Source: Spirogloea muscicola
Lineage: Eukaryota; Streptophyta; Zygnematophyceae; Spirogloeales; Spirogloeaceae
NCBI GenBank assembly: GCA_009602725.1
Contig: WELB01000134.1
Coordinates: 8,287-72,286, forward strand
Reading direction: 5' to 3'
DNA: 64,000 nt
The notes beneath the pieces are model-generated. The model did not search any database and was not told the origin of the DNA. It was given only the letters and a program-made list of their open reading frames with translations. The position numbers and the translations under genes were made by a program. Positions 2,150-59,742 of the stretch are shown here, piece after piece. Position 1 is the stretch's first letter, and the number at the start of each line of letters is the position of its first letter.

Positions 2150-2315
2150 GACGGGTAGTCTTCACGACTTGCGGCTGTTAAGTAGAGGTTACCGAGTGGT
2201 TATCCTACATGGTACTTGCGTATGTACTTCAGCCCTTTTCGTCCCCTTCGGACCTTGTTAAGTTTCTGGGCTGGCTTTTCACAGCCCAGAGGTGCCCATT
2301 GTAAGAGCTGTTTCT
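2150..2315 (+). mobile_element. Degenerate LINE 3' end with hairpin tail
   Basis: A worn copy of the peptide tail found elsewhere in the window (DLRLLSRGY, about 2168-2194, its stop codon mutated to CGA). It is followed about 75 bases later by the conserved tail: GGGCTG...CAGCCC at 2268-2287, then a short CTNNAG-type stem ending in AGAGCTGTTTC. It sits between the DUF3007 and YchJ-like genes. Order and spacing match the better copies at 9838-10104 and 11190-11366. This is a 5'-truncated non-LTR retrotransposon fragment. Confidence 0.65.
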
Positions 2316-2828
2316 GTCTAAGAACACCACAAGCGTGACAAGCTTGCTGCGTGATGACCTGAATCTGATCCCATCAGCAGCCTTGCTGTTCGTCTCAATG
2401 TGCATCTTTCAGAAATTGGAAGATGTGTTGAGTGGTTGAGTAGTGGCCTAAGGACACAGGCAAGCACACTGACAGATGTACATCACCTGCTGCTAAGCTG
2501 ACCTGCTCAGAAACCACGAGTCAGCACGCAGAGGTCGCTCACAGTCAGGCGCTTGGAACCTGGAAGTCGAGACTTGGCAGCGAAGCACGGCTGTGGAGCG
2601 CCGAGCTTTCGGCCACTGGTCGCTGCGCCGTCTCTCGAGGTTGTCGGAGCTTTTCCCTGCTCTCGGTCTAGTGGGCGCCCGATGGTGGCGCCGGCATTGG
2701 CGGCGGTGCCCACAGTGTGGCCAGTGCGGCAATGGGATCCAGCTGCCGGCGCGGCAGTGGAATTCCGTCGAAGGCTGGGAGGTGACGGCTGCTTCAGCAC
2801 CCAAGTGCTACGGAAGCTCCATCGTTGC

Positions 2829-4648
2829 ATGGCTGGCGCGATGTCGCTACCTGCTGTGCCACTGCGGCAGCCCCAGCAGCGCCCACATTGCAAAACTACG
2901 ACTATTGCTGCCGCTGCCAAGGGCAAGGGCTTCGGCGAGCTCCTGCGCCAGCGCAGAAGGGCGGATGACGGCGGCGTCGGTGTCGGCGAGGGGGTCACTG
3001 GCGAGGCCGTGGCAACGGCGGCGGCAGCCGAGGGCGAGGCGGGCAGCCGGCCCTGTCCCTGTGGCGGCGGCGCTGAGAGGCTGCCGTATGACCAATGCTG
3101 CCGGCGCTTCCACGGCGGCGCCGTCGAGCCGGACGCCCTTACCCTCATGAGTGAGAGCTGCCAGCTGCATGCACGTCGACTACTATAATACCTCCAAGTC
3201 TACACATGCTAAAATGAGGGACTTTGACATGTGCTTCGGCTGAGTCTGAGTCTCATTGGCTTACGCATGGCAGATATATCAGGTAGAGAAGCCATATTGG
3301 ATAATAAGGAACATTGAGGAGGATCTGTTAGGTCTATGATTTGTCGCTTAGACCAGAGTGTTAAGAACACCTACAAGAGACGCCCTGCAACTATGGAGAG
3401 TACAGAAGTCAGTCCCCATTGCTCGTCATTGCCAATCTGCAACCAGCAGCCTCAAGGGTCACTACAGAATTGGATTGTGCAGCTGATTGCAGCTCGTGGC
3501 AAACGGTAACTGCATGAGTTGCCATTACTATATCCGGCCAGCTGTCATGCAAACCTTGTGTAGAGGGCGTAGTCTCTGACTTCAGCCCCGTGCTGCTGTG
3601 GACTGACTGTGGTCATGGACCCTGACGAGCTCTCGGGGCTGCTGGCGCCGCCGCTGGCGGCGGCGGCAGAGGCAAGGTACTCGGCATATGCCAAGGGCGT
3701 TGTGCCGTACATTGTGCGCACAACGCACCTCGACAACCCCGATGTTGCAGGTTTGCCATCAGCCTTCGATCACAACTTCTGGCTTCCCTTATGTCAGATA
3801 CCCCTTCCTTCTGGTACCGCCACTACCAGTGGGCAGACCAGAGGGCGAGCTGAGATGAGCTTCCGCAGTACCTGTGCTCGCACAAACATGCATCTCCTGG
3901 TAATGTGAATGTTGCCGTCCCATGGTGCTTAAGCCGGCAACCCTTAGTGCAGAGCGTGGTGGGAGCCTGGCGGCAGATGCTGAGACAACATGCAAGCAAC
4001 TGGTCTTCAAGCGCCTTGAGTTTCGAGACCATACTCTGACGCCCACAAGCGCGGACGAGGTCGTCCCCTGCCTCACTGCCTGTAGCTTGCTGCCCTCTTT
4101 GTGCCATTCAGCGCAAAAATTGTACTGGCTGCGCTGTCATTGTTGTCAAGTAACATTCTCTAGGTTGCTATTGCTGTAGCTTCCAAGTAATCTTGCTCCG
4201 TTGTGGAATCCTTGCTTGCCAGTCACGCCCATTTGAGGTCCTCCAGTGTCGAGCATGGCTGCTGTATCCAGTCAACAGTCAGCCACCTGGATGTCATTGG
4301 GCTCTGCCTGCCGCCTTGAGTGTCTTTTACTCATTAATTAATTGATTGTCAACATCACGCATCTGGTCATAGAGCAGTGTGCTTCTTTCACGCAGCTCCG
4401 TGTAGCCCCTCCTGCAGGACTATGTATCCTTCCGAGTGACCTACTCCATGGCCAAAGCTGGGAACCGAGGCGAGGACAAAGTTCTGATAGAAACAAGCAG
4501 ATTCTTGAGAAGCGAAGGTCGGTGGCTATACCGGGAGAAGCTCACAACAGATATCACCTCCGATAAGGGGTGGGAGAATGCCATTTGGATGCAGGATGAG
4601 CGCGCCCCCCGCAAGCAGGCAAGGACGTACAACACAAAAAAAAAATGA
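2829..4648 (+). CDS. YchJ/SEC-C zinc-binding domain protein
   Basis: Four exons: 2829-3150, 3670-3750, 3953-4059 and 4418-4648, with phases that fit exactly (741 nt, 246 aa). The SEC-C type motif is CPCGGG...LPYDQCCRRFHGG in exon 1. The exon 1/2 junction rebuilds EPDALTLM-K-ARYSAYAKG, the hallmark LMxxRYSAY of the YchJ (UPF0225) family. Exon 3 supplies GGSLAADAETTCKQLVFKRL, and exon 4 DYVSFRVTY and ETSRFLRSEGRWLY, which match the NTF2-like second half of the family. Biochemical function is unknown; the Cys cluster probably binds zinc. The chosen ATG gives an Ala/Pro/Arg-rich leader compatible with an organelle transit peptide, but the same frame stays open to an ATG at 2553, so the start is uncertain. 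The last residues after GRWLY are not conserved, and a further 3' intron cannot be excluded. Confidence 0.82.
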
Positions 4649-5392
4649 TTGTTGTTTGCTAGGCTTTTGTTGCAAGTAAAACTCCTTGTTGATGGCGAAG
4701 GACTCTTCCAGTAGGGGGCGATGGCTGTGGTTGCAATTGTGTAAATAAATAAATGGACTTCAGAATCGTTGTAAGAGGCTGCCCTGAACATCTCAGACGG
4801 TTGGGCTCTCACAAGACAAGGCATGTGGACCAGCTGCCCTAAGCATCAAGGAGCCAGTCCAACTCTTTCTCTTTTTGCTGCCAACACAGCTGTTTGGCCA
4901 TTCGCATCAACCTGAGTAGGCTAGCAAAGCTGACAACACATACACTTAATGACCTTATGAGCTTAGTTGGGTTAAAATTAACCATGTGTCATATTTACCA
5001 GCTGTTGTGGGGGTCCTTGGCAGACTTGCATGGGCTTGGCAACAGCCATCAGTCAGGCTACCTTACAAGCATTTCAGCAGGCTTGAGAGATCAGGCTCTG
5101 TCTAGTCTATGGCATGCATAATGCCTGTCGCAGGAATCCACTTGGATATCTATTGGAGCATAAGTATGGTGTGGTGTGCAGGTCCAGTGACATGCCAAAG
5201 TCATAGCTGAGTTTCATGCTTGAATAAGCACAGCTCAGGAACCTAGTCTCGAAATGCCTCAACCTTAAACGAACAACACCCAGTCCCTTAAGCAGATCGA
5301 CCAAATTTCCCGTGTACTTTCAGTACATTGGTAATTTGTCGGCAGTAATTTTGTCGGCCAGGTCAAGCTTTACCGTCGTGATGCTCATGAAC
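4649..5392. other. Convergent intergenic region, nothing recognised
   Basis: The 3' flanks of the YchJ-like gene (+) and the first OPR gene (-) meet here. I see only AT-rich unique sequence; the short ORFs have no recognisable content. Confidence 0.6.
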
Positions 5393-8005
<2,613 letters not shown>

Positions 8006-8600: not shown

Positions 8601-8619
8601 ACTGGATGTATTTTTTCAA

Positions 8620-9240
8620 AAAAAAATAGATGAAAGCGGCTGCTGGCAATTGAGGAGCGGCTGTAAAAGCTCCGATGACGTGAAAGACCAGCCCACCCAA
8701 GTAGGAACAGAAGATCTGAAGGAGCCGGAATGGAGCAGCTCTTCCAAACTCAAAGTTAAGGCGATGGCTGTGAGAGGCCAGTCCCAAAGAAACAGCTCTT
8801 ACAGTGTAAGGCAATGGCTGTGAGAGGCCAGCCCAAAAAGAAGTTAGCAGCTTATGAAAGAAGAAGAAGAAGTGGCTCTCCCAATAGGGGCAAGGGCTGT
8901 GAGAAGCCAGCCCGAAAAGAATTGACAAGGTTCGAAGGGGCCAAACTACGAGCTAAGCAGCGACTGCGGGGCCTGAAGAGGCTATGGCAGAAGGGGGGAG
9001 GATGGACCACTCAGTACTTACGAGTAAGGAGCCTCACATCCGACAGACTAGCTACCGGAAATCTATCCCCCTGACGAAAGCCGGAGGCCGCAGCAAGAGC
9101 ACGGCCAGCACGCAGATGCAAGGCGTGGGCCATGGACCGCTGGAGGGAGACGGACAAGCGCATACGAGCCCTTATGAAAGGGCACGGAAAGGATGAGTGA
9201 ACGGAAGGTTGAAAACTCAACAGGTGCAAAGGTAGGCTCC
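8620..9240 (-). mobile_element. LINE 3'-end fragment with multiple hairpin tails
   Basis: On the minus strand, 9175-9011 encodes the conserved C-terminal peptide (MRLSVSLQRSMAHALHLRAG ... SDVRLLTRKY, stop). About 85 bases downstream comes the structured tail GGGCTGG...CAGCC followed by a TGGGAGAGCC stem, and then at least two further tail units near 8840-8765 and 8700-8640. The RLSVSLQRSMA motif resembles the end of the C-terminal nuclease-bearing ORF of some algal and protist non-LTR retrotransposons. Only the 3' few hundred bases are present. Confidence 0.7.
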
Positions 9241-9267
9241 TCTTGGAGTAGGACAGAATGGATTGAA

Positions 9268-9680
9268 AGGAAGCGGCTGCTGATATTAGAAGAGCGGCTG
9301 TGAAAGCCAGCCAGATGCATACAGGTGTTCATGACGGAGCCACAGGCTAGACAGCCAGGGCGCTCTTAGTAACCCCGTGTCAGCAGTAGGAAGTCAGATG
9401 AGCTGAGGGGAGGAAGAGCAACCCCGCTGCGCAAGCCAGAGGCTGCTGCAAGGGCACGACCAGCGCGGCGATGCAAAGCAAGCGCTTGGGAACGCTGTAG
9501 CGACATAGACAAACGCATACGGTAGCAGGACACAAGACGCAAAGGCACCGAGCCACCGGGAAGGGCTGCACCCCGCCGGGTGGTCCTTGTACTTGTGCAA
9601 GGAGGAAGAGAAGGGGCGCGGCGCATGAATGGAGAGGGGTGGCCTATTGAAGCCAATACGTGTTCAGCCAATACATGTTC
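9268..9680 (-). mobile_element. LINE 3'-end fragment (peptide tail + hairpin)
   Basis: Minus-strand ORF end at 9366 with MRLSMSLQRSQALALHRRAG and a final SSDFLLLTRGY, followed by the tail variant CTGGCTTTCACAGCCGC near 9320-9290. The 9268-9400 part is repeated at 10396-10530 in the same orientation, showing two copies with the same 3' tail subtype. Confidence 0.7.
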
Positions 9681-9837: not shown

Positions 9838-10200
9838 TACCGTATGCGCTTGGCCGTCTCGCTGCAGCGGTCTATGGCCTGCACGCTGCACATGCGTGCC
9901 AGCAGAGCCCTCGCTGCTGCCTCTGGCTCTGGCCAGGGGACCCGCTTCCAGGAGCCTAGCTTCTCTGACCTGAGGCTGCTTAGCAGGGATTACTGAGTGC
10001 TTCTTAGCTGCCTTTTTTTAATAGCGCTTCCCCTGGCCCCCTTCTCGTACTTTGTTCTTCTTTTTGGGCTGGCTTTTCCAGCCCCTATCCTTAATGGGCA
10101 AGCCCTTTCTTCCTTTCCTAGCATGTTCTGACCATCACAGCCATCCCTTTGGGCTGGCCTCTCTCGCAGCCGTTGCCTTACACTGGAAGTGCTGTTTCTC
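9838..10200 (+). mobile_element. LINE 3'-end fragment with two hairpin tails
   Basis: Plus-strand peptide MRLAVSLQRSMACTLHMRAS ... SFSDLRLLSRDY with stop TGA at 9994-9996. At 10065-10104 the tail shows a perfect stem GGGCTGG-CTTTT-CCAGCCC, then CTT-AATGGGC-AAG. A second tail unit lies at 10151-10199 (GGGCTGG...GCAGCC, CTT...AAG). This is the clearest copy of element order: ORF end, about 70-base spacer, hairpin 1, hairpin 2. Confidence 0.75.
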
Positions 10201-10395
10201 CCTCTTTCTCCGAAGCCATCGCCCCCTTCAAAAGAGCTTATTCCTTTGAGCTTCTCATCTCGCTTCGCTTTGTGTGAAGCCCCGTGCTCTAGAAAAAAAC
10301 ATCGCCTGACCAGTGTACTACCTGACCAATGTACTGACTCGGCTTGGCCTCCACTTCATTTCACATGCACTGCGTCTTAACTCTTTATTGAAAAG

Positions 10396-10535
10396 GCGGC
10401 TGCTCGTATCACAAGAGCAGCTGTGAAAGCCAGCCATGTGCATACAGACGGGTGTCCATGACTATATTAGCGGAGCAAACAGGCTAGGCAGACACGGCGC
10501 TCTTAGTACCCCCGTGTCAGCAGTAATCAACAGCT
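10396..10535 (-). mobile_element. Short LINE 3' remnant
   Basis: The minus strand reads LLTRGY then stop TAA, followed by the same tail subtype as 9268-9400 (CTGGCTTTCACAGCTGC). Only the last few codons of the ORF remain, so this is a severely 5'-truncated copy. Confidence 0.65.
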
Positions 10536-10692
10536 CTTCCATTGAAAGGCAGGGGCTGTAGATGGATAGCCAGGCCCAGAAGATTGGACAAGGTCCTAAG
10601 TAGGAGAGTAGGAGAGCCACTTCTCTAAGTAGGAAGTCAGATGAGCTGGGGGGGGGGGGAGGTGGAGAGCGGGAGGCCAAGTGGCAGCTGGC

Positions 10693-11189: not shown

Positions 11190-11366
11190 ATTCTACTCCG
11201 ATCTGCGCTTGCTGACTAGAGGCTATTGAGCGTCTATTTGCAGGAGTATGTACAATACAAGTCACGTAGACTTGTATTGTGCTTTTCGCCCTTACGCCCT
11301 TTCGAAGCTTGTTCATGCATGGGCTGGCCTCTTACAGCCATTGCTTTACATTGGAAGAGCTGTTAA
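11190..11366 (+). mobile_element. LINE 3' remnant with hairpin tail
   Basis: YSDLRLLTRGY and stop TGA near 11226, then a spacer, then GGGCTGGCCTCTTACAGCC at 11321 and the CTTTACATTGGAAGAG second stem. Same order as the other copies; the upstream ORF is lost or too diverged to read. Confidence 0.65.
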
Positions 11367-12205
11367 TTCCATTTGGCAGGTGGCATGAAGCCGCCCACGC
11401 AGGGGATCGATGAGCGTCGAGCAATCAGTCCAGGCAGTCCGCTCTCATGCGGTATAGCGGCTTGACGTCGAGGGCGGAGGACATGTCCTGGTAAGATGGT
11501 ATGACCGAGCAACCTGTTCTACCTCTTGAACTCTGATTCGAAAGAGCACGATGTCCTGGCGAACAGTTGAGCATGGCGCTTAGCAGTGCTGTGTGCCATG
11601 TGGGATGTACATGAGGGAATTGGTGCTCGTCTCTAAGGGCTTCAGAAGAGGCACGACTTGCTGTTTTGCCCTCAGATGATCGGTTGACGGGCCTGCGTTT
11701 CAAGCTCTCTAAATTTCACAAGAAGCTACACAAAGTAATGTTGACTACACACAGAGCATACAGGCAGACCTGGTGCCCCCCCCAACAGTGCGCTCACGTG
11801 GACATGTGAGTTTGCAGGAGGGTACATTGACTGCCTTTGACTCGTCTGTCTTGTAACTTGCTCGATTTTTCAAAAGAATCTTTCGAAATAAGAGAAACTG
11901 TACACTTACTGCCTCCCAGCCTCATGGATTGAGGCCGCTTGGCAAATTCATGAAGTGGAGATTCTACTACCCCAACACTCACTCCAATATCTGGAGTTGC
12001 AAATTGATCAAGTGGAAAACCTTACACAAGCAAGCAAGAGAAGTGGAGGCTAGTCTATTCCTCAGAAGGGCTAAAACACAAGAGGCGATGAGGATGGCAT
12101 GAAGATTGGTCCTGCTAGTTGGGGCTGCGGCATATGAAGACAATCAACTTGGCTTCTTCTTCAGGATTCTGGCTGGTTCATTTAGCCACGCAAAAGGCTG
12201 AGATG
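11367..12205. other. Downstream flank of OPR copy B, nothing recognised
   Basis: Unique-looking sequence after the last copy B exon (minus strand). No ORF, RNA or repeat that I can support. Confidence 0.5.
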
Positions 12206-15144
<2,939 letters not shown>

Positions 15145-16981
15145 GGCCGTGGAGGCGGGGGCAAGGGGAATGGAAGGGAGGGGGCTTCCTGACTGTCGAG
15201 AAGTTGTCGGGGAAGGAAGGACCTAGACCCAGGCCCAGGCCCCGCTAGACGGGAAATGGACTGTGTACGAAATGATCAAGGAATAAGGAAAATACTCTTC
15301 CCATAGAGAGCGATGGCTGTGATGGCCAGCCCGGAAAGCCGGGTTACATGGAGCGAAGCCCGACGCTGAGGTTGCTAAGATGGAAAGCAACAAGGACGAA
15401 ACCTTATATAGAAAGGAAAGGTAGAGAATCATGAAGATTGAATAAGTTGAAGGAATGACGGAATAGCACTGCTGAGGGCGAAGGTTCTCCCCAGCAGGGC
15501 GCGGCCCCGCCGCGGCCCTGGAAACCGGGAGGTGCTTTCCCGGGGGGGCCAATCCCGTCGTCAAATGCAGTGCCGGTCGTAGCCCAGATGGTAGCACGTT
15601 CCAGGGAGGCTCTATTGGCGCTCTCATTTCCCGGGCCCCACGCCTGTCGGCGGCTTTTGTCCATCATGACGGGCCCGGATCCATGTGGGGCGGCTCCGCC
15701 AATGTGGTGGCAGCGTACCACCGCCGCTGACGCCAGCGGCGCTGAGCTGGCGGCTCAAGCGGCAGATGCAACGACCCAGTGACGCAGGCGCGCGTCAGCC
15801 CCGTCAAGTGGGGCCAGGTGGGCCGTGCGTGATGGTCAGCGTCGGCAGTTCGACTTCGACATCTTTTAGTCTATGGTTTCCTGTGAGCTTTCATACATCT
15901 GATTTGTGACGCACAATTGACCGACGGATTCGACGCATAATATGCTGCGGCACTTCTCTCGCTCTGGAGCTGCAGTCAAATAGGCTCGCTGTTCAGCACT
16001 AACGAATTATCGAGCATTTTGATACTCAGATGCAGATTTTGGCTCTAGTGTGTGACGCCATTTGTTGGTCCCATCCACATACTTATCCACAAATTTTCCG
16101 GTTGAGCAAACACAAGAATGACGGGATCTGCTACGAGCCACCACCCAAGATGGTTTACTTAAGACTTGGGGGGGAGTGCTGGTGTCGCAGCTCCCGCATC
16201 ATCAGCAGCAGAGATTATTATCGCTGATTGCATTTGGATATAAGCTTGAATGAGAACCAACCATGGCATTCCGTTCAGTCATCCAGATGGGCGGACGAGG
16301 AACAGATGTAGATCCTCACAGCACTCCGATGTTCTACAGAAACCTCCAGCACTAGTCTGGCCTCGCTTTCAAATTCACAGGGTAGACGAACATTTTGTTT
16401 CCCTTCTTTCTTTGTACCTACCTGCTTGCTGGGCCACCCCGAAGGCACGACCCTTGTATAGCGCCATGTCCACGCAAGCCCACCTATTTGCGCCATGAGC
16501 GCCTTTACATGCCGCTGCCTCCACCTCTTTCACTGCCGCAGGCGTGCGAGCGCCGGACTATCTGCTTAGCAGTAGTCAACAGCAGGGCCGCCTGTATACA
16601 GAGATCTGAGCACCTATTGACCAGTCTACACTGCGCCTTGAAATGCTAACCATCTGTGCTCGAAGCATAGTCGTGACGAGCCTCGCCACATACCACCCTC
16701 CTCCAATATACCTTTGGGTCAGCCCCCGTGCTTGTAAAAGATGTCATAACGACTTCTCAGAGGGGATGAGGCAACCTGAGCAAGGGGCCTGAACAATTTG
16801 CAGCGGGAGAGATGACAATCACTTCGACATGTGCTTAAGCCAAGGCTCTTGCAAGCAAGTTCGATGCTCTAGAAGGAGCAAGAGGAGGTTATCGGGTATG
16901 CAAAGAGCCTATGCGTAAAGACAAAGCCTTGAGAACGGCTTGTTCACATGCTGCATTGTCAACACCTGCACAGACCTCCTG
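15145..16981. other. Intergenic region with one isolated hairpin tail
   Basis: Between OPR copy B and AP1G. On the minus strand 15333-15288 is one LINE-type tail (GGGCTGGCCATCACAGCC, then CTCTCTATGGGAAGAG) without the peptide. The rest, including the GC-rich part at 15480-15800, shows no gene I can support. Confidence 0.5.
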
Positions 16982-23060: not shown

Positions 23061-23766
<706 letters not shown>

Positions 23767-39439: not shown

Positions 39440-40292
39440 GCCAGCCCGCATTAGCTTCGATGGGAATTTCTGCCCAGATCCTGTTGTGCCTGGAGACTGT
39501 TGTTATCTGGATAGGACAAGCCATTAAAAGTAGGATAATTGTCTTATTGAGCGCCAATCAAAGGATGTAACAGATTTCGCACTCTTTGCCCTTGGAGGAG
39601 CTTGCTGCTCACTGAGATCGTGATACGTCTATGCATTGGGTGTGTCAGGCGGACGCCGACACAAGGGCTGTCTGTTGCTTGCCGCACCACAGCGACAGAT
39701 GCAGATGCTATGCCCTCTGCACCTCCAGCGACGTGCACCTCCGCCAGTGCCGACGAAGGCAATTGAGCTTTTAACATGATCTTTCTAGCAGGCAGCTCGT
39801 CTGGCTGCGCTTCAGCTGAAAGTCCAGCACGAATCGTTGCAGGGATTCCTTTGCAGCAGGCCTCAAATTAGAGTGGTGCCAGCAAAAGACTGTGCAGTTC
39901 TCAGCCTGAAGGGATCAAAGTTGGATGATCCGTCACCAGTAATTAATTTGAGAGCGGGTGTCTCTCTAGGTTTTGTCATGTGGTGGACACAGGTACTGTC
40001 ATTGGGCATCTGTACAATGTGCTGACTGGAGGCTGGGTACATTTGCTACCAGAGCGTGGCCAGGCACGCACAGAGGACAGATAAGAAGCTCATGCAAAGG
40101 GGGCGTGGCTGTGGAAGGCCAGCGCGAAAGAATGGACGAAAGACAGCTTTGAATAATCTTACAAGTGGAAGAAAGCCTGCCAAGCTCACTGTCAAGTAAC
40201 AGGCAGCTGACGGCAGAGCTCCAGCATGCAGCTGACAAGAGTGACACGGGACAGGGTGAGGGGATGGACATAGTCATCGTTGACAGGGGCAG
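39440..40292. other. Convergent intergenic region with one isolated hairpin tail
   Basis: Between the UBA gene and the ARM/WD40 gene. At 40125-40090 (minus) is a tail copy GCGCTGGCCTTCCACAGCC followed by CCCCCTTTGCATGAG. Nothing else is supported. Confidence 0.5.
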
Positions 40293-43200: not shown

Positions 43201-44421
43201 ACTTGGAAGACGTCCTCAGTGATGGCCCGCAGCGTGGCAGCAAGCTCCGCAAGCAGCTCAGCTTTGCACTAGTCCGTCAGCTGGGTGCAGTGACCAATGC
43301 CCGTGGCCACGTCAACGGTCTTGCCCAGCATTGTGATTGCGGCACAGCGGTTCTCAGGCTTGCGCAGCAGCGCAAGAATGGTGGTGACCGCGCCTGCCTT
43401 GCGCCGCCACTGCGACGAGCCTCAACCACCGTCCAAGGAATGCGACCGCCGCTGCAATGGAAGGCCCAGCAAGCCGGCTGCTCCACACGCCCACCGGCAA
43501 TGTTGATGAAGCCGATGTCAATGAGCGCGGCAAAGGCCTCGGCATGGGTGGAAATCTCCACGCGGCTCGCATATGTGGACCGCTTCAGCGTGAGGTGCTT
43601 CAGCACCTGCGCCATGCCACAGGCACGACAGGACGTGAGCGGTCGGGCTGGGCTGGCGAGAGGAAGCAGCAGTGCGTCTTGGACAGCCCAGGAAGGTCAC
43701 AGAGGTCACCGAGGTGACCAGCTCGGCAGTTTTAGGGTTTAGGATTAGGCTCAGGGCTCAGGGCTGGGACTTGGGGTTCAGGGTGGCAGCAGCACGTGCT
43801 GTACCTTGGCTATGAGGCCCTCCCGCACGGTCGCCTGGAAGGCATCCGGCAGCCTAAGACACGCAATGGCCATGGACACAGCGCCCAGGGGGAAGCACTG
43901 CCACGAGCTGTGGCGTGCGAGCGGCGGCGGCGGCGGCGGCGAGACCTGGGGAAGACGAAGAAGTAGGGGGCGGTGCTCTGCTGCTGCGTCACCGGGCCCG
44001 CGACCAGCGCCGCAGACGCCAACGCCTACACAAACTCGTCTGGCAGCTGCCGAGGCCAGCGGGTCGACGAGCTGAGTGGCTGGACTCGCGAGCAAAGCCC
44101 GGCGGCGGCAGCGCCGGTGGCGGAGCGGCACTGACGGCGTCGCGGGAGGAGGCTGGCGCGGCAGCCAGGACAGCGGCAATGCCGGCTGCGGCGGCGTCGG
44201 CGGCGGCGGCGTCGCGTGGCGCATCAGCCAAGCGCGCCAGCAGGCCGAGGAACAGGGCGCCGGCGTCGCTCGGCGCCACGTGCTCCGCCAGCGCCCTGGA
44301 GGCCGGCGCCACCATCAGCGGCGGCGGCAGCGGCGGCGGCGGCGCACTGGAGCGTGCGCAAGAGCTCGGCGGCGCGCGGCAGCTCCTCGGCGCTCAGCTC
44401 CACCTCGATGGACAGCCTCAT
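40293..44421 (-). CDS. ARM-repeat/WD40-repeat protein, identity not resolved
   Basis: Exons I can phase: 42963-42904 (VRSYFGHRNAVFAMAYG), 42772-42702 (DHSRDQLISGSKDSTLIIWS), 42594-42502 (VVKTLDISQHYACSMDIDAN, then HQTLLVASAAK), one ending 40753 (TCLDCGGSNGHEVLSGSMHA, HIRSWDLRALL) and the last 40500-40293 (LYHNLRWVNSHSTLFAAGND, stop). These are WD40 blades. Upstream minus-strand exons are alpha-helical and armadillo-like: 43910-43805 (PLGAVSMAIACLRLPDAFQA), about 43615-43490 (MAQVLKHLTLKRSTYASRVE) and about 43395-43270 (AVTTILALLRKPENRCAAIT). The probable start is MRLSIEVELSAEELPRAAEL at 44421, 158 bp from the VPS52 start. ARM plus WD40 occurs in plant LIN/CERBERUS-type proteins, but I see no U-box, so no name is given. 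The split into one gene is inferred from continuous orientation. Confidence 0.62.
41237..41734 (-). other. 165-aa ORF of unknown, probably transposon-derived origin
   Basis: An open frame of 165 codons within a long intron of the ARM/WD40 gene, lower in GC and less Ala-rich than its surroundings. It starts MELMHDIRSRQATPYGYITE. The frame upstream (41735-42050, minus) continues with recognisable but interrupted codons that take part in the fold-back repeat. I do not recognise the protein. Its position inside an inverted-repeat structure and its interrupted extension suggest a decayed mobile-element gene. Confidence 0.45.
41860..42245. repeat. Fold-back inverted repeat, arms of about 180 bp
   Basis: 41860-42050 and 42070-42245 are diverged reverse complements around a short spacer. 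For example CTGGCAACATTGAGATGACT at 41999 pairs with GAGTCATCTCAAAGTTGCCA at 42100-42119, and GATACTATGCTTCCGCAGG at 42221 pairs with its complement near 41870. Identity is imperfect, so the palindrome is old. It lies in an intron of the ARM/WD40 gene. Confidence 0.8.
43727..43790 (+). repeat. Telomere-like repeat in an ARM/WD40 intron
   Basis: TTTTAGGGTTTAGGATTAGG followed by degenerate CAGGGCT words. On the gene's sense strand it reads CCCTAAA. Confidence 0.65.
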
Positions 44422-44469
44422 GGCGCCGGCGGCGGCCGCGGCGGGCTGTGGCAGTCCAGGCCGAGGTCC

Positions 44470-44555
44470 GGTTTAGGGTTTTGGGGAGGCTAGGGTTCGG
44501 TGTTAGGGTTCTGAGGGCTCCAGCTCCAGGGTTTAGGGCTTGGGGTTGGCTGTGC
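44470..44555. repeat. Telomere-like repeats in the 158-bp divergent promoter
   Basis: GGTTTAGGGTTTTGGGG, TAGGGTTCGGTGTTAGGG and AGGGTTTAGGGCTTGGGG lie between the ARM/WD40 start (44421, minus) and the VPS52 start (44579, plus). Plant telo-box motifs (AAACCCTAA) are known promoter elements, so a regulatory role is possible. Confidence 0.65.
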
Positions 44556-44578
44556 GGACGCCCGCGCGCGGCACCGCC

Positions 44579-47500
44579 ATGGCGGCGGTGGCAGCGGCGG
44601 CGCCGGACGCCGTGGANGCTGCGCCGCCGGACGGCGGGCTGGCGGACCTGGACGTCACGGCCGGCGACCTCACGTTCGGCGGCGAGGACGGCGCCGACGG
44701 GTAAGGGCCGCCCTCGCCGCCGCGTCTCCCACGCGGTGCGGCGGCTGAGCCTGACGGCGCCGCAACGCGCGGCGGCGGGCTGTGCAGCGACGAGGTGTCG
44801 CTGCTCGGCCTGGCGGAGGAGCTCGAGAGCTTCCGGGAGCAGGAGGTGCGCGTCTTGGCCGCCGCCAAAGTCGCCGGCGTGGGGCCCGCGGTGGCAAGGG
44901 CGCGCGCATAGAGGCTATGCCGCGGCCGTGGCGCTGAGCGCCAGCGGCGTCGTGGGCTGGCCGCCGCAGGAGGTGGCGGCGATCCTGAAGCAGGGCGCGG
45001 AGCTGCGCGAGTACGCGCGCGGCGTGGAGGACAAGCTGCGCCTCGTGGAGCTGGAATCCATCCAGGCACGGCCGCTGCCGCGCCACGCCGCGCCAGCGAG
45101 CAGCCGCCGCTGTCGCAGCAGCTGGCGTGACGCTTACTTGGGGGCTGCCGCTCCCGGCGCTTCGCTGCCGCAGGACTACATCCGAGAGAACGACAACCTG
45201 GTGACGCTGCACACGCAGATCCGCGAGTGCGACGGCATCCTCGGCCAGATGGAGTCCCTCCTCGGCGGCTTCCAGGTCAGCCGGCTGCCCGTCTGGGCCG
45301 CCGCGGCAGTCTCCTGGTGCCCCATCTCGCTGCTGCGTCTGTCGCAGCTCCTGGCCATCGATGCCTGGCGCGCGCGGCCATGGCGGATTGCAGCGCGATC
45401 TGGGCTCGATCAGCGCGGAAATCAAGAGCCTCCAAGAGCAGTCCCTCGGCATGGGCATCAAGCTCCGCAACCGCAAGGTCGCCGCCTACTCGCCGACGCC
45501 GCCGCCCATCCCTTGCCCGCTATTGGGATCGGGCAGCAGTCTGCAGCAGCCGCGCTGCTTGGAGCGGGCAAGCCGGTGCCTGATGGGGTGGCCAGCGTCG
45601 CCCTCGCGGCGTTGGCACAGGCGGCAGAGAGCCGACTTTCGTGGTTCATTGAGGAGATGGTTGTGCCCCCGGAGCTCGTCGACACAATCATGGACGGCGA
45701 GGTGAACCGGCGTCCCCGTGCACAATGCTGGTACTCGTCAGCGCCTCGCCCTGACGCACCGGCAGCCAGCTCACACTGGCTGCCCTTGGGCTTGGCCTGC
45801 GGTGCATTGCCTCCAGGTAAACGAGGCCTTTGTTCGAGCGCTGCAATCGCTTCACCGCAAGCTGCAGTTTGCAGCCGAGGAGCCGGCGGCACGCACGGCT
45901 GCGGCGCTCAAGGACGTGGAGCCCGTGCTGCACAAGCTGCGTGCCAGAGCCCTCTTCAAGGTGCGCCTCCCCCGATCCTGTCACGCCTCGCCTCGCCTCC
46001 TGCTGCAGGGCTGGCCAATTTGCGCTGGCACCGCCACCATCATCTGCTGCTGCTTCACTGCGCCTAGCTAGCTTACGGAAAGACGGCGGCGAATGCAACC
46101 AGGGCCGGGAGTACCTGATGCAGAAGGTGTATGCCCTTCGCAAGCCCAAGACTAATGTCCAGATCCTCCAGCAGAGCGTGCTGCTCAAATACAAGTGAGA
46201 GCAAGTGCCCCTCGATTGACTGATCACTGTGGCGTACTTGTGCTTGCACCCCATGCCGACCTCAGCGAGCTGCCAACCGAATACACTGGAAACTTAGGCT
46301 TCTCCATCCGCCGAGTTGAGCACCTCAAGTGGTATTCACTTGCAGGTATGTGGCGACATTCCTCCAGGAGCACGGGAAGGACGTCTTTGCTGATGTGCGG
46401 GCGGCGTACGTCGAGACCATGAACAAGGTCAGTCTGAACAAGGCCTGGTCGCTCGGCCGCTGTCACCCAGCAGCCCACGGAGAGTCCACTTGCACTGCTG
46501 ACAAACCCTCCATACATATTGCTTGCTGCTGCTCTCTCGGCAGGTCCTGAGCTCGCACTTCCGGACGTACATCCATGCGCTGGAGAAGCTGCAGCTGGAC
46601 AACGTTAGTCGCACGGACCTGATCGGCGTAGAAGACAGCAGCAAGGGCGCCGGCGGCCTCTTTGCACGGGGCCAGCAGCCACTGAAGAACCGCTCAGCCG
46701 TCTTCTCCCTTGGCGACCGCGCCTCCGTGCTCCAGGACACTGACGAGCCGGCCATCATCCCGCACATTGCAGAGCTGGGGGACAAGAGATTTGCGTACGA
46801 GGTCCTGTTCCGCAGTCTCAGCAAGCTGCTCATGGACACGGCCACAAGCGAGTAGGACTTCAGAAGCCCCGCCCTACCCCTGCAATCTCACAGAGGAGGT
46901 TGTGGTGACTGGGTCTTGTTGGGTTGAAAGCAAGCTGACGGCTTTGGGTCGCTCATTGGGCGTGCAAGAGCTTGTGTTAGGTACCTCTTCTGCTCGGACT
47001 TCTTTGGCGAGGATGTCACATTCCAAGACATCTTTGCAGGTACGTATGAGCACGTTGCGGGCAAGCGTGGCTTGGCTGCACTCTTATACCTGTCCTCATA
47101 ACTCAAAAGACGACTTTATACTGCTCTTACGCATATTCATGAGGTACCAACCTCCTTACTGCATTCTGGCGAGAAAATCATTATCAACTGTTGCTGAATC
47201 CTTTCTGAGCGAGCATGAATGTTGAGGGGCACTGGTCGGTTTGGCTTGCTGCGTCACTCTCGCTCGCTGACAATGAGCAAAAAGGATGTGGAGGTCACAG
47301 GCCCCTTTGCGGTGATCAACGAGCACCTCACGGCTGTGCTGCCCAATTGCTTCGACGCCATCGGCCTCATGCTCATGATCAGAATGACTCACCAGCACCA
47401 GGTGACGTCCTACAGGATGCATTCGCCGCTGGCATGGAGGCCATTGGTGCGGCAAGTCACTGCCGCGCTTGACTGCTGCAGGATGCATCTGAGCAGGCAG

Positions 47501-49107: not shown

Positions 49108-50200
49108 CACGAGGTTGGAGGCATTTGCGCCCTTGCCAAGTGCCGACCGCAGGTGCTGCCAACCGCAGGCCTGTCTTACTGCATGCCTCAGTCCTGGATT
49201 GAGGAGGAGCGAGCCGGAGCTTCTGGCGCAGGTTGTGGGTGCCCACAAATGTCGCCTTTGGGCTTGCGCTTCCAGAGCAGCACGGAGGAACTTACATGGA
49301 GCAGAGCAAGGAAAGGGACAGAGGAGGGCGGAGGTGGGAAAGGACTTGGGTTGAGGAAATTGAAAAATGGATAGGGAGCAAACCATGCTCTGATCGTGGA
49401 GGGCCAGAGTGGCCAAGAACAGAAGGCAAGCACATCCACAGATGTGAGCCAACGCCGCCTTCTGCTTTGCTGACCCAAGCAGTAGCCGCAGGAGCTCGTG
49501 AAGGCCGCTGACCGATGCCCGAGTATCGGGTTCAGCCTCCAAGCCCCCCTGCCACCGACTGCAGTTGGCTCAGCCTTCTTTTGGTGCGGAGCTCAGGGAT
49601 GGGCCTCGTTCATTCTATTGTGGGCTGGCTATTCACAGGCCATGCCCCCTTTGGAGAGGCTGTTTCAACTTTCACAGTTCTGGCCCCCTTGGGATATGTC
49701 GGGCATGGGCCTGGGCTCGCTGCCGCCAGGCTGACATGCGGCCGCGTAGGAGCGAGAAGGGGCTCTCGTGAAGGAGGAGAGGAATGCGGGGGGCATGCAG
49801 TAGAAAGAAAGGAACGGCTCTTTCAGTGAAAGGCAATGGCTGTGAGAGGCCAGCCCAAAGGGGATGAAGCATAGGACCAAGCGCGTGGTGTGTGAGGAGG
49901 GGGCCTGAGTGGCTGAGTCCAGAGTAAGCTCTTCCGAATGGGCCGAGCTTTGTAGAAGACAGCCACACTCTTGTCAGACTCTTTCTCTTCTCTTTCTCCA
50001 GGTGAGGACGATGGCTGCCTGTGAGAGGCTAGCCCAAAGAAGAAAGTGCTCGCCCATTGAGAATAGGGGCTGGAACAACCAGCCCGAAAAAGAATGAACA
50101 GAGTACGAGAAGGGGGCCAGCCCAAAGGAATGGACAAGGGCTGAAAGAGCAGGATACTAGCCTCCAAGACGTCAGCAAGTGGGCTTCTCAATTACCTCGA
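49108..50200. mobile_element. Intergenic region with at least four LINE-type hairpin tails
   Basis: Tails at 49621-49666 (+; GGGCTGGCTATTCACAGGCC then CTTTGGAGAG), 49860-49813 (-; GGGCTGGCCTCTCACAGCC), and 50092-50005 (-; two in a row, the first a perfect GGGCTGG-TTGTT-CCAGCCC followed by CTC-AATGGGC-GAG). None has the full peptide beside it. They are either extremely truncated LINE copies or a short non-autonomous element using the same tail. Confidence 0.6.
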
Positions 50201-54618: not shown

Positions 54619-57100
54619 TGCCATCCTAATATGTGTGGGTTAATGTATGTCATCCACTTGTAGGTGAATGCCATTTTGCTTAAGGGAATTGATGGCACAC
54701 AGTCTTGCAATCTCATGAGACGATGTCGAGGATATAACCTTAATTTAGATGAAATGCAATTGTGCCAAATCATGGGAGGTCAATCTCATATCTGTCATCG
54801 TTGTGCCTACCCCGTCGTACCAATTCAAACATTTGATGCCTCGTTGGTACGGCTTGTCCTGCAATGTAATGTACAGTTGCTAAAGCTTTCACTGGCTCCT
54901 AACCAACTTAAGCCAAGGTCGTCACGAAATAACTGCAGTATGATGCTGCCATCGTTGGCATACGTGGCTGGAGGGTGGCTGGCCCTTTGACATGAGTGGA
55001 TCTTGTGTATGGTCATGGTGATCTATTGTGGTACATGATTAGCATGGCGACTTTCGATGTTGCACCTATCGACTACATGTCAAATCCGTGGCGATTTGTC
55101 TTCTCCCCTCCGGTGGGCATTTGCGCAATTCAACGTGTCCACCATACTGCCCCCTCTTGTCATTACAATTGCACTCTAGGGGTAAACTATTCAATCACTA
55201 CCATTTTCCAAATAGATCATTGGACGTCCACATGGACAAAAGCGCTACTAACCGGACACTGCTGCTGCTATATCTGGTCTAACTGCCTCAGCAACGAACA
55301 TAATAGCTCTCATGTTTATAATCGCAAACACTAAATTCCATGTGTACTATTGGGCATCCGCTGCACGCCTTCACTGCTTTCCGTTGCTGATCCTTGCTTC
55401 AGGTTTGTTGGCCATGGTGTGGGGTGGAATGGGATCGCAGTCTTGCATGCCAAATCTGTCACAAAGCCTCCGTGACATAATATGACCACCCCAACTCGAT
55501 GTCCTGCTGCTCCTATCTCTCTTCACTCGGATCCGCAAGAGTACTCCAGGGGCCCAGGATCCTTCATCTAATAACCACCACTTCCTTCCCCACTCAGACA
55601 GCTGAGACTACCAGCACGAGCAACTCTTCATGTTGAGCGATCATCACCTTGGCAAACAGCTGATTCATATAGGCGCTGCTACTATACATTCTGGTATGAA
55701 ATGAAGCAATGGAGTTTTTAGCACACCGAGCCCTGGCCCATCTCAACGCATAGCGTGCTTCTTTAGTTTGCATGCTTTACTTCCTCTGCCTTCACCGCAA
55801 AAGCTTAAGCAACTCTGCTCTACTTTCAAGCCGGTGAAGCAGCCACGGACGAGGTGAGAAAGCTGCTATTATACAGCAGCTTTTGCATGTCGGATACTGG
55901 GTGTGTGGCCTACTCGCTGAACATGAAGATAGTGAGGATCAGAGAGCAGAGGTCAATCTAGGCCGGAGTAGTAAGTCGAACTCGTCGAGCTTTGGCATGG
56001 AAGGGAGCAAAACACTACTAAGTCTCATGGAGCTATGGCAAATACTAACGAGAGAGCAACAACCGCAGATGGAGGAGGTAAAGGCGGAGGTGACAGGTGT
56101 AGTCTACCAGCAAGATGTTGGCTGTGCCGTGAAATCGATGGCAGGTACATGGTCAGATTTTGCTGAGCAACTGGAGCAGTATGCCAGACTTGCCTAGAAT
56201 GCTTCATTCGGCAAGCTTTCAAGCGCATGTTCCAGTACCTTGCTGAAACAGCTAAGTACATAGCTCGCTGACTCACTGCACTCGTGCATCACGTTCAAGC
56301 GACAGAAGTAAGTAATTGGCCTCCCAAAGGACGGGACCCTCCAGATCGTCCAATCATGCGCTATCTGCTCGAGACGTGCTTTTGGCCTTACTTCTGTATC
56401 GCCTTCGAACGACCTGGGCCCTGACTTTTGCAACTTCGGATAATGCTCTTTCCTTTCTAACGGGCTGGCCAATCACGGCCATCGGCCTCTACTGGAAGAG
56501 TCGATCATTTTGCAACGGATAGGGGCCCTTCCAGGTCGTCTCGCTCCGTGCGGCTCGCATTGACCTCTTCATGACTCGGTTGGCGCAGGCTGGGTGGATA
56601 ATGCAAGAGCACCACGTCGGGCTGCGTTGTTGTGTTGGAAGGAGCCGAAGTATCTTGAAAAGTAGGGGACAAAGTGGCTCTGCTACGATGAAGGCAGAGT
56701 GTATGGTGACCACTCAAGCAAGCAAAAAACGCAAAGCAAAACAGTGGTTGTCTCGTCGGAATGCTACTAGAGGAAGTGCTCCCCTTCCATCTACAGTGCC
56801 ACTAACGAAGAGCCCCGCTTCACATAGTGAAGTAAGCATACTATAGTACGGACGGACTTTGTGCAAGAATCATAGAGGCATAGAGGCTGAATGATAATTG
56901 GACGGGCAAAAAGTGTAGCTCGAAGCGTGTAAGCAGACTGAAGCATCTGAATGCAGACCACTACCGTTCGGTGTTGCGTTACAGAAGTCATACTTGCTGG
57001 ATTACTTCGAAAGCTTCTATAGAGCGCGGATCACCCGGGAGGGTATGCATAGAGAACTTTGCCCTACACACGCTGGTAAGGTGAGTCGTCTTCTTAAGCT
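54619..57100. other. Gene-poor region; one ORF and one hairpin tail
   Basis: I see no supported gene. The 104-codon ORF at 55883-56197 (+) has no features I recognise. A hairpin tail copy is at 56462-56502 (+; GGGCTGGCCAATCACGGCC then CTCTACTGGAAGAG). The rest looks unique or too diverged to classify. Confidence 0.45.
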
Positions 57101-57314
57101 CGTCTATAGAGGGTTTGGGTACCAACCCTCTATACGACAAAGCACTCGCGCGTAGGAGCAGCGGAAGACAGGCCCTGTGGCGCCGCCATCAGGCGGCGAC
57201 TCCACCTCCTGGGCGCAAGCCGGCGGCTTTCCTCGAAGGGGCGCAGCCACGGACTCCCTGCAGCAAGCCACGCGGCAGGCTGCAGCGGAGGCTGCGGAGG
57301 CAAGCAGCGGCAAG

Positions 57315-57605
57315 GCTGCTCCTAAGCTTTACAGGTCCGATGCTGCTCCTAGGCTCTACACGCGCGGGCTGGCCGTGCTATGGCTGCTGCTTCCGGGTCT
57401 CGGCAAAGTGCCGCTTCTCCTGCTCCGAGTTACTCTGATCTGCTGTTGCTCACACGTGGATACTGAGCAGCCATCTGCATCTGCCTCTGCACCATCTTGC
57501 ACTTTGTAGTGTAGTCCTTTTTCAGCACCTCTTTCTTTGGCTTTGAACATTGTCCATTCTTTTTGGGTTGGCTTTGCCAGCCCCTCTTCTCAATGGGCGA
57601 GCACC
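57315..57605 (+). mobile_element. LINE 3'-end fragment with hairpin tail
   Basis: The frame ALHARAGRAMAAASGSRQSA, continuing to YSDLLLLTRGY, stops with TGA near 57456. The tail follows at 57563-57603: GGTTGGC-TTT-GCCAGCC, then CTC-AATGGGC-GAG. The G.T wobble in stem 1 keeps pairing. This copy differs from the 9838 copy at many bases yet keeps the peptide. Confidence 0.7.
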
Positions 57606-57775
57606 TTCTTCTACAGGTTCGAACTCACGTTGGGTAGCAGCCCAAGGCTCTTCGTGCTTCCCCCGTGCCACCCCTCCTCCAGGGGTATGAGCCAGTCGCC
57701 CTATGGCCTTGCGGCGGGCCAAAAATCCTCCCTTGAACGGGTGGATCCTAGCGAGGGGTATATTTAGGAAGAAAG

Positions 57776-57816
57776 TGCTCGCCCATTGAGAATAGGGGCT
57801 GGAACAACCAGCCCGA
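57776..57816 (-). mobile_element. Isolated hairpin tail
   Basis: Minus strand: GGGCTGG-TTGTT-CCAGCCC, then CTC-AATGGGC-GAG, nearly identical to the copy at 50092-50040. No peptide adjoins it. Confidence 0.6.
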
Positions 57817-58059
57817 GTTTTATTTAGGACGGGCGGGACCCGCACCTGGGCGGGCCGCTTGCCTGGCCAGCCAGCCCGCCACCTGGCGGGCCACTTGCCG
57901 TCAAATGGCAAGCGGTCATGTGACGCTAACAGCACCGTGTGACTTACTCAAACGGCTGAATCGTTACCGGCGGGCCACTGGCCATCAATATGCACGGGGT
58001 TTTGGGGCCTCAGTGGCTAGACCTGTTGACCCGGCTTGCATGACGCGCTGTGCCCGCAG

Positions 58060-58251
58060 GTGGGGCGAGCAGGCCAAAGTCAACCCCGCTGGCTCGCTGA
58101 TGCAGGTATTTGCATGCGCCTGTCCATATGCTTCCAGCGGTCCACGGCCTACACCTTGCATCTAAGTGGTAGCCGTGGTCTAGCTGCAGCCACTGGCTTC
58201 CGCCAAGGGGACTGGTTCCGGCGGCTTCATGTTCTGACTTTCGGCTGCTAA
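58060..58251 (+). mobile_element. Frameshifted LINE ORF-end fragment
   Basis: NPAGSLMQV in one frame and CMRLSICFQRSTAYTLHL in the next give the same order as the better copies (AGSLAQVYRMRLAVSLQRS), so a frameshift lies near 58100. It ends FRQGDWFRRLHVLTFGC with stop TAA and a degenerate last block. Confidence 0.6.
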
Positions 58252-58549
58252 GTAGAGATGGTTATGAAGCAATTGGCGGGCCCACTTGTCCCAAGTAGTT
58301 GGTCATGTTATGCCAACAGAGCCGTGCGGCTTAACCAAATGGCCGGTTCATTGCACGTCACGACTCCTGGTTGCGCGGCTCTCAGCTCTAGGTTCAATCC
58401 ACGCTGCCCAGCCTGGTGGAAAAGTCCGTCTCAGGCATCTGTCAAGCCTTTCCTGCGCACTGACAGTCAATGTATCTATCAGCCGGATGAGATGACTAGT
58501 CTCCAAGCTTCTGTCAATACATAACTGCTGCATTGACTTTCCAGCCATG

Positions 58550-58748
58550 TGGAATCGTTTCACTATCTCCCGCCGATGCCATGGGGAGCAGGTGGATTTC
58601 CACGCAGCTGGCTCGCTCGCGCAGGTATACCGCATGCGCCGTCTCGCCGCAGAGGTCCATGGCCTGCACGCTGCATCTGCGTGCCGTTCGTGCCTCAGCA
58701 GAAGAAAGTGCTCGGCCATTGAGGAGAGGGGCTGGAAAAGCCAGTTCA
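58550..58748 (+). mobile_element. LINE fragment joined to an inverted tail
   Basis: Plus strand GEQVDFHAAGSLAQVYRMRR is a copy of the upstream part of the conserved peptide. It breaks near 58690 and runs directly into a hairpin tail in the opposite orientation (58748-58708, minus; CTGGCTTTTCCAGCCCC). Confidence 0.6.
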
Positions 58749-58822
58749 AAATGATTGAATAGAGTACGAGAAGGGGGCCAGGGGAAGCGCCAAGTAAAAC
58801 AAGTACACAAAGAAACAAGCAG

Positions 58823-59388
58823 CTACGAATCACTCAGCACCCCCGGGAAGCAGCCGCAGACCAGAGATGCTAGGCTCCTGGAAGTGGGTCCTCTGGCCAG
58901 AGCCAGAGGCAGCAGCGAGGGCTCTGCCAGCACGAAGGTGCAGCGCGCGGGCCATAGACCTCTGCAGCGAGACGGCCAGGCGCATACGATACACTTGCGC
59001 CAGCGACCCGGCTGCAGGAAAGTCAACCGGCTCCTCATGGAAGCGCCGGGCGATGTTGTGGCGAGCGAGCTGGGTGAGCAGCTAGAGCCACCGAGCGCCC
59101 AGCGCCTCATGGTTGTCAATCGCCAACGGGAGTTTACTCGTCTTCCCGCGGATGGTCGGCGTAGTTGAGCTCTTTAGCCCGAGCGGCCGCATACCCAACC
59201 TTGGTGGCACATTGGGCTGGGTGTGAGCGGTCGTATGCGTCGGTGGTCACCACGTCCAGGAGAAGACGTGGCCCGCCGGCCTGTGGGGTGGCCACCAGGT
59301 CTACGCGACGGGCGTGGAGACCGTCGGCCCTTTCCTGGAGCGGCATGACGCCGGAGTGCTCCGCTGCCACCAAGAAACCAGCCTCCAC
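58823..59388 (-). mobile_element. LINE ORF 3' region: nuclease-like domain plus C-terminal peptide (decayed)
   Basis: The longest LINE fragment in the window. Minus strand 59388-59134 reads ADGLHARRVDLVATPQAGGP, then LLLDVVTTDAYDRSHPAQC and KVGYAAARAKELNYADH. This RxxDLVA...LLDVVTTD...ARxKELNYA pattern is what I know from the C-terminal nuclease-like part of algal and protist non-LTR retrotransposon ORFs. After stops and a frameshift the chain resumes at about 59080: LLTQLARHNIARRFHEEPVD, AGSLAQVYRMRLAVSLQRSM, ARALHLRAGRALAAASGSG. It shows that the short peptides elsewhere are the end of this ORF. The reverse transcriptase domain itself is not in the window. Confidence 0.65.
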
Positions 59389-59606
59389 CAGGACAGCTGC
59401 AGCCTCTGGCCCTGGCCAGGGGACCCGCTACCTGGCGACCAGATTCTCTGACCTGCGGCTGCTTAACAGGGGTTACTGAGTGTTTCGGAGCTGCTTGTGT
59501 CCATGTGTGCTAACTTTAGCACTTTCCCTTGGCCCCTTCGAACTTTCCTCACATTTTCCCTGGGCTGGCCTCTCCTGGAAGCCACCGCCCTCTCTTGGAA
59601 GCCTCT
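59388..59606 (+). mobile_element. LINE 3'-end fragment, head-to-head with the previous one
   Basis: Plus strand AAASGPGQGTRYLATRFSDL then RLLNRGY, stop TGA at 59477-59479, with a tail at 59561-59606 (GGGCTGGCCTCTCCTGGAAGCC). It abuts the minus-strand fragment at about 59388, so two truncated copies are fused in opposite orientation. Confidence 0.65.
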
Positions 59607-59696
59607 TTTCAAAGGTGTGACGAGGGTTGCCCCAAGGTCCTCCCCCGGAGGGGCGGGCCTGATAAGCGCAGGCGCATGCGCTTCATTGAAAAGATT

Positions 59697-59742
59697 TGCT
59701 CGCCCACAGAGGGTAGGGGCAGATAGGGAAAGGCCAGCCCAA
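59697..59742 (-). mobile_element. Isolated hairpin tail
   Basis: Minus strand GGGCTGGCCTTTCCCTATCT followed by CTCTGTGGGCGAG. Stem 1 is weak here, stem 2 fits CTC/GAG. Confidence 0.5.

What the first reader, a model, noticed from the sequence alone, without database searches (positions are those of the whole stretch)
2268..59742. Dispersed double-hairpin tail shared by LINE fragments and stand-alone copies
At least fifteen sites on both strands carry the same short module: GGGCTGG-loop-CCAGCCC (or GGCTG...CAGCC), then about 8-12 bases, then a second small stem. Stem 1 is kept when bases change (perfect GGGCTGG/CCAGCCC at 10065; GGTTGGC/GCCAGCC with a wobble at 57563). Stem 2 alternates CTC/GAG, CTT/AAG and CTCT/AGAG, which looks like compensatory change. 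In full copies it lies 70-110 bases after the LINE stop codon; at 15288, 40090, 49813, 50005, 56462 and 57776 it stands alone. In some LINE families a 3' RNA structure is recognised by the reverse transcriptase, and short non-autonomous elements borrow it. This family may be such a LINE/SINE pair.
Basis: partly seen in the sequence, partly recalled or inferred. Interest (0 to 1): 0.72.

Follow-up and report, generated by a model that had tools for sequence, protein, structure and literature searches.

The report
Shared hairpin tail of LINE families
Several families of a jumping gene (a LINE) in one eukaryotic genome end in the same short hairpin sequence; the scattered "stand-alone" hairpins look like cut-off LINE copies rather than a separate small element, and the tails seem interchangeable between families and are often hit by new insertions.

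Summary
The module is real: about 20 sites in the window, against a chance expectation near zero. It is the 3'-terminal ~55 nt of several LINE families (A-E here) with an R2-like reverse transcriptase and, less surely, an R2-like restriction-type endonuclease. It lies at a near-constant distance after the LINE stop codon and ends sharply about 40-50 nt after the hairpin start. The hairpin GGCTG/CAGCC is nearly invariant. An alternative stem 2 has one clearly co-varying pair. The SINE idea is not supported either: stand-alone copies have scattered 5' ends, match LINE 3' ends and, where testable, carry target-site duplications, so they are 5'-truncated LINEs (down to ~49-75 nt). Two further points: families A and B have the least similar proteins (60%) but tails as alike as the closest pair (86%), suggesting tail exchange; and 11 of 18 young D copies sit in sequence of the same LINE group, against 4.5% of window positions. 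Best reading: a reverse-transcriptase recognition tail, exchanged between families and itself a frequent landing site. Recognition by the enzyme is inferred, not shown.

The parts
10058..10112 (+). LINE 3' tail, A type, 61 nt after the stop of LINE fragment 9838-9993
9838..9996 (+). C-terminal end of a family A LINE ORF (...DLRLLSRDY, stop TGA)
   Evidence: tblastn 87% to the L063 protein; stop
8866..8921 (-). LINE 3' tail, D type, 89 nt after the stop of LINE fragment 9166-9014
9011..9166 (-). C-terminal end of a family D LINE ORF with its stop
   Evidence: (90% to D)
8786..8842 (-). LINE 3' tail, E type, next to the D tail
8754..8783 (-). partial E-type tail
9267..9321 (-). degenerate tail, 44 nt after the stop of LINE fragment 9566-9369
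10143..10201 (+). E-type tail
10525..10584 (-). degenerate E-type tail
11313..11369 (+). E-type tail after a LINE C-terminus (SDLRLLTRGY, stop)
15285..15340 (-). stand-alone degenerate tail
2260..2317 (+). stand-alone degenerate tail
40079..40133 (-). stand-alone degenerate tail
49614..49669 (+). degenerate tail
49808..49864 (-). stand-alone E-type tail
50039..50113 (-). 75-nt 5'-truncated A2 LINE 3' end inserted into an E-type relic; 13-bp duplication CTTTGGGCT(G/A)GCC, one mismatch
49995..50034 (-). distal half of the interrupted E-type relic
   Evidence: (E 0.05)
56454..56510 (+). stand-alone degenerate tail
57557..57611 (+). LINE 3' tail, B-like, 90 nt after the stop of LINE fragment 57353-57463
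57768..57816 (-). 49-nt stand-alone A2 tail, hairpin and 3' end only, between two copies of the 9-mer TATTTAGGA (read by eye)
58701..58755 (-). A-type tail downstream of LINE fragments 59394-58848
58848..59394 (-). family A LINE C-terminal region, frame broken
59554..59611 (+). tail, 74 nt after the stop of LINE fragment 59396-59476
59689..59748 (-). degenerate tail with extra bases in the hairpin
60501..60557 (+). weak tail after LINE fragment 60210-60440
   Evidence: (E 0.02)

Best explanation
The module is the 3'-terminal recognition tail of a group of apparently single-ORF LINEs with an R2-like reverse transcriptase and a probable R2-like restriction-type endonuclease. Steps. (1) The LINE RNA ends ~20 nt after the second half of the tail in a pyrimidine run (CUUCUUC): read from the sharp 3' boundary of copies. 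(2) The LINE protein binds the hairpin tail to place the RNA 3' end at a nicked target: inferred, by analogy with R2 and with stringent LINEs. (3) Copying starts at the tail and often stops early, so many insertions hold only the tail (49-130 nt) between target-site duplications: shown by copy anatomy. (4) The tail has moved between LINE families: inferred from mismatched protein and tail similarity and from one A-body/B-tail element. (5) Pyrimidine-rich LINE 3' ends, hairpin loops included, are frequent targets, so tails pile up in nested and tandem arrays: the nesting is shown, the pairing of the RNA 3' end with the nicked purine strand is inferred.
Confidence: 0.75

Rival explanations
1. 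A LINE/SINE pair: the stand-alone copies are short non-autonomous elements with their own body that borrowed the LINE tail.
For: Many stand-alone copies, some in tandem at 106-188-nt spacing; plant and algal LINE/SINE tail pairs are in print (PMC3747384, passages and one section read).
Against: 5' ends are scattered along the LINE sequence; the one pile-up (9 D copies at 22 nt) lies at an indel between two D subfamilies, by eye. No tRNA by ARAGORN in the window or 40 loci. Stand-alone D and A copies match LINE 3' UTR and ORF end up to their 5' end.
Confidence: 0.08
2. The tail is a transcript 3'-end signal (terminator or processing hairpin) needed to make the LINE RNA end, and not a reverse-transcriptase binding site.
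For: Fixed distance to the 3' end and a hairpin followed by a pyrimidine run; no poly(A) seen at the 3' ends of the copies printed.
Against: Does not by itself explain exchange of tails between families or the precise start of copies at the tail; but the two roles are not exclusive.
Confidence: 0.12
3. The high A/B tail similarity is not exchange but convergence or strong selection because both proteins happen to bind the same tail, or later gene conversion between copies.
For: Tails are short (58 nt) and under constraint; only one clear A-body/B-tail element was found (L068, the same place as L061).
Against: B and E proteins are closest (23 of 25 C-terminal residues) yet their tails are only 59% alike, so selection alone does not hold tails at 86%.
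Confidence: 0.3

Closest known systems
R2 retrotransposons and their 3' UTR RNA element (PMC12222951: passages read)
   Same: RT closest to R2 among PDB sequences; C-terminal domain model closest to R2's C-terminal end in the second look; short structured element near the RNA 3' end (R2Tg: last 67 nt; R2Bm: two hairpins).
   Different: Not confined to 28S rDNA; scattered insertions with duplications of 4-23 bp as printed; the hairpin sequence is shared by several families; no support for a pseudoknot.
Stringent-type LINEs with a 3' stem-loop, zebrafish ZfL2-1 and ZfL2-2 (PMC4176376: abstract and section list)
   Same: 3'-tail hairpin at the RNA end.
   Different: Those are L2-clade LINEs (APE-type, recalled) that, by the abstract, recognise only their cognate tail; here tails appear to pass between families, and recognition is not tested.
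Plant L1 ME1 lineage with maize and sorghum SINEs; Chlamydomonas L1-1_CR/SINEX-3_CR (PMC3747384: passages and section 16)
   Same: Conserved last ~45-50 nt with a hairpin while the rest diverges.
   Different: L1-clade and with SINE partners and compensatory changes; here R2-like, no SINE partner found, no compensatory support.
Zepp / ZeppL LINEs of green algae (PMC3446292 and PMC8226300: passages)
   Same: LINEs nested in one another.
   Different: Zepp is an L1 element and sits in clusters, about one per chromosome; this group has no APE domain by Pfam and its copies are on many contigs.
NeSL/Utopia RLE-type LINEs (PMC4640811: passages)
   Same: RLE-type architecture with zinc-finger motifs.
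   Different: Utopia targets U2 snRNA genes and is reported from Amoebozoa, SAR and Opisthokonta; no fixed target seen here.

Membership tests
RLE-type non-LTR retrotransposon (R2/NeSL-like group) | Reverse transcriptase domain of non-LTR type | tested here: met
   RVT_1 8.4e-16; the 3 PDB sequences at E <= 0.01 are R2 proteins, E 7e-7 to 1e-6. No RT tree was made
RLE-type non-LTR retrotransposon (R2/NeSL-like group) | C-terminal PD-(D/E)XK endonuclease | tested here: inconclusive
RLE-type non-LTR retrotransposon (R2/NeSL-like group) | No APE endonuclease domain | tested here: met
   No such Pfam family up to E 1 in the 1350-aa L063 frame
RLE-type non-LTR retrotransposon (R2/NeSL-like group) | N-terminal C2H2-like zinc fingers and a CCHC-like motif before the endonuclease | tested here: inconclusive
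   zf-C2H2-type models 11-14 bits, below cut-off; a CxC..HxxxC stretch is seen directly; the motif rule is recalled
R2 clade | Insertion at a fixed 28S rDNA site | tested here: not met
   Insertions at many unrelated places
LINE of the stringent type | Conserved 3'-terminal hairpin | tested here: met
LINE of the stringent type | Compensatory change in the stem | tested here: not met
   an alternative stem 2 exceeds shuffles (0/500) through mainly one pair
LINE of the stringent type | Tail required for retrotransposition | not testable with these tools
   needs an assay
LINE/SINE pair | SINE with a fixed 5' end and its own body | tested here: not met
   175 tails, scattered 5' ends
LINE/SINE pair | Pol III or tRNA-like head | tested here: inconclusive
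   ARAGORN 0 in the window and in 40 small loci; degenerate A/B boxes and 7SL- or 5S-like heads were not scanned

The most novel reading that the evidence does not exclude
The tail is a shared currency and a shared landing site: several LINE families whose proteins differ by ~40% use mutually acceptable hairpin tails, swap them by template switching, and their RNA 3' ends (CUUCUUC) pair with nicked pyrimidine tracts in older tails and hairpin loops, so that each insertion creates further preferred targets and tails spread as self-nesting arrays.
Probability: 0.3. Interest if true: 0.6.

Novelty: new variant of a known kind. Interest (0 to 1): 0.42.

Why it matters
RLE-type LINEs are known mainly for fixed targets and for each element's own 3' RNA element. 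An abundant R2-like group (thousands of unconfirmed first-look candidates) that shares one short tail across families, with a natural body/tail mismatch, makes it possible to ask directly whether a LINE protein picks RNAs by the tail alone and how tail choice and target choice are linked. It also warns that hairpin-bearing short repeats next to LINEs need not be SINEs.

Tried and rejected
An automatic search for duplications with a swapped-flank control did not separate signal from background (score >= 5 in 26 of 194 against 73 of 637 controls), so duplications were read only where a reference 'empty site' exists. Of 38 rows printed there I read 14 insertions as duplication-flanked; the other rows are repeats of the same place or overlaps of shared repeats. 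For L057:2270 and L101 the duplication read by eye is longer than the one printed. The duplication of the L068 chimera is uncertain, because ACACC may belong to the LINE 5' end. L044 looks like an A 3' UTR with a B distal end (by eye) and was not pursued. L057:2270, first taken for a chimera, is a C copy nested in a B 3' UTR. Foldseek alone gave no match at E <= 0.001 for either model, and its top rows were Tdp2. In one search rows that are not R2 proteins (Wolbachia Cin/Cid factors, acetyl-CoA carboxylase) score close to the R2 rows. Genome-wide counts could not be had: only first-look candidate numbers (1330, 6219, 741, 1540), which are not confirmed copies. The organism was not identified and no RT tree was made.

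Rows dropped: 219 tails became 194 after removal of duplicate places. Clusters were made from those with at least 54 nt (77). Alignment A1 holds 75 of these 77 representatives (L104:65-120 and L057:875-930 were left out without a test) plus two window sites. The nesting count uses 18 of 20 D loci; the tandem loci L107 and L108 were left out. In one search, 175 of 194 tails had a usable match to their own family; 5' ends near zero in family E (34 tails) may reflect divergence from the single E reference and not truncation.
Full report
What the window is. The window is G000:C134:8287-72286 of an unnamed eukaryotic assembly of 153 Mb in 471 contigs, GC 0.47-0.65 by 4-kb piece. A (CCTAAAC)n-like stretch at 27854 recalls the plant and green-alga telomere type; that is a recalled resemblance and not an identification. 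No Rfam family reaches its gathering score in the window.

Is the module there? Yes. The plain pattern GGGCTGG-N2..9-CAGCC occurs 13 times (10 distinct places) against 0.36 expected, and a tighter pattern 9 times against 0.04. A covariance model of 56 positions finds 20 sites at E <= 0.001; 13 window rows were among its 77 training sequences.

Families. Five tail types were named here from the loci: A (with A2), B, C, D (with a D' subtype), E. The commonest stop-to-tail distance is A 77 nt (10 of 18 copies under 100 nt), A2 65 (5 of 8), B 88 (5 copies), D 87 (14 copies), E 70 (2 copies), C 55 (one copy) (an ORF end was found upstream of 87 of 194 tails). Between families the 3' UTR is hardly alignable (z 1.2-4.4 in ten pairs) while the tail is (z 4.3-12.6). 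In five clusters of copies, conservation stops sharply about 40-50 nt after the GGCTGG of stem 1 and fades gradually upstream. That is the anatomy of a LINE 3' end with 5' truncation.

Structure. A hairpin at stem 1 is predicted in 10 of 10 tails tested: 8 with GGCTG/CAGCC (up to eight pairs in B) and 2 (L042, window 49802) with an overlapping UGGC/GCCA pairing; z-scores of the fold energy range from -0.44 to -2.98. On 77 distinct tails (A1) stem 1 shows no covariation (78.2% paired, 78.5% in shuffles). A stem 2 in another register (columns 40-44 with 48-51 and 59) does (score 0.280 against 0.223, 0 of 500 shuffles), but mainly through one pair, UA in 28 and CG in 27 rows, which separates E-like from A/B/D-like tails; parsimony on a tree gives 4 changes of pair type among 58 paired leaves. 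RNAalifold finds no consensus structure. A loop-to-GAG pseudoknot has no support. Because most copies are dead, these negative tests speak against the compensatory claim but do not exclude a selected fold in the active elements.

Stand-alone copies. For 175 tails with a usable match to their own LINE family, the 5' end of the homology runs from 12 nt inside the tail to 1000 nt (the reference limit) upstream, without a shared end; in family E, ends near zero may be divergence. The only pile-up, 9 D copies at 22 nt, is at an indel between D and D' (by eye). ARAGORN finds no tRNA in the window or in 40 small loci. Where the pre-insertion sequence is known from a reference, I read 14 insertions as flanked by duplications. 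Among them are a 61-nt C copy (TTATGAGTGAGGA), a 62-nt A copy (GATTTG), a 123-nt D copy in the hairpin of an A tail (CTTTTTCCAGCC), and in the window the 75-nt A2 copy at 50039-50113 (CTTTGGGCT(G/A)GCC). The 49-nt copy at 57768-57816 lies between two TATTTAGGA (by eye). So a LINE insertion can consist of little more than the hairpin. This is ordinary 5' truncation taken to the limit, and not a SINE.

Tail exchange. In the last ~135 residues A and B are 60% identical, the lowest value (with A2-B) among A, A2, B, C and D, but their tails are 86% identical, equal to A against A2, whose proteins are 93% identical; B and E share 23 of 25 C-terminal residues but their tails only 59%. The L068 locus (the same place as L061) has an A open frame of 1338 residues followed by a B tail. 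The simplest reading is that tails pass between families. Its mechanism (template switching or gene conversion) is not shown.

Landing sites. Of 18 near-identical D copies, 11 have 3' flanks in sequence of the same LINE group, against 90 of 2000 random 45-mers of the window; one of the 11 (L103) is a weak match and one (L089) is short. The loci came from the top of one search list, so some bias is possible. Of the 14 duplications read, 12 begin with C or T, and the element ends in CTTCTTC-like runs; because the end of such a run and the start of the duplication are hard to tell apart, this count leans towards pyrimidines. Pairing of the RNA 3' end with the nicked purine strand would explain both the variable (TTC)n and the preference for LINE tails. 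This is inference.

Against what is known. R2Tg binds a pseudoknotted element in the last 67 nt of its 3' UTR, and R2Bm a two-hairpin element (PMC12222951, passages). Stringent LINEs bind their own stem-loop (PMC4176376, abstract and section list). A maize and sorghum L1 lineage keeps its last 45 nt with a hairpin while the rest diverges (PMC3747384, section 16). Nested LINEs are known for Zepp (PMC3446292, passages). I saw no paper describing this group or tail exchange between RLE-type LINE families in the listings of the searches, which cover only the held library; Repbase was not available. The kind is known; the shared and apparently exchangeable tail in a dispersed R2-like group is a variant worth following.

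Verdict. Observation largely right; covariation and SINE parts not supported; best read as the 3' recognition tail of an R2-like LINE group, with truncated copies, exchange and self-nesting.

Noticed in passing
window 23119-23765: 647 consecutive A bases with N on both sides: probably an assembly or gap-filling artefact; the ORFs listed there are then spurious.
   Followed up: partly
L045:2955, L062:2541, L094:15 (and near L002): A more divergent LINE family (C-terminus SDLYVLTRGY, ~30% identical to A) seems to end in a different sequence with a perfect GGCC-ATTT-GGCC palindrome instead of the GGGCTGG hairpin; no copy in the window at up to 3 mismatches.
   Followed up: partly
L009-L018 (contigs C33, C170, C235, C267, C412, C70, C80, C225, C294): A separate RT family with an open frame of 1237 residues in 9 of these 10 places (1172 in the other), two of them on contig C235; may be a recently active LINE.
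   Followed up: no
L108, L107: Tandem D tails at 106-188-nt spacing, as if new copies land at the end of an existing tail.
   Followed up: partly
window 44076-46067 (+): 663-aa frame matching Vps52 coiled-coil (E 1e-14): probably a host gene.
   Followed up: no
window 60529-60976 and 61288-61755: A ~450-nt direct duplication, 70% identical, with CTGCTGCCG-like repeats, apparently unrelated to the LINE tails.
   Followed up: no
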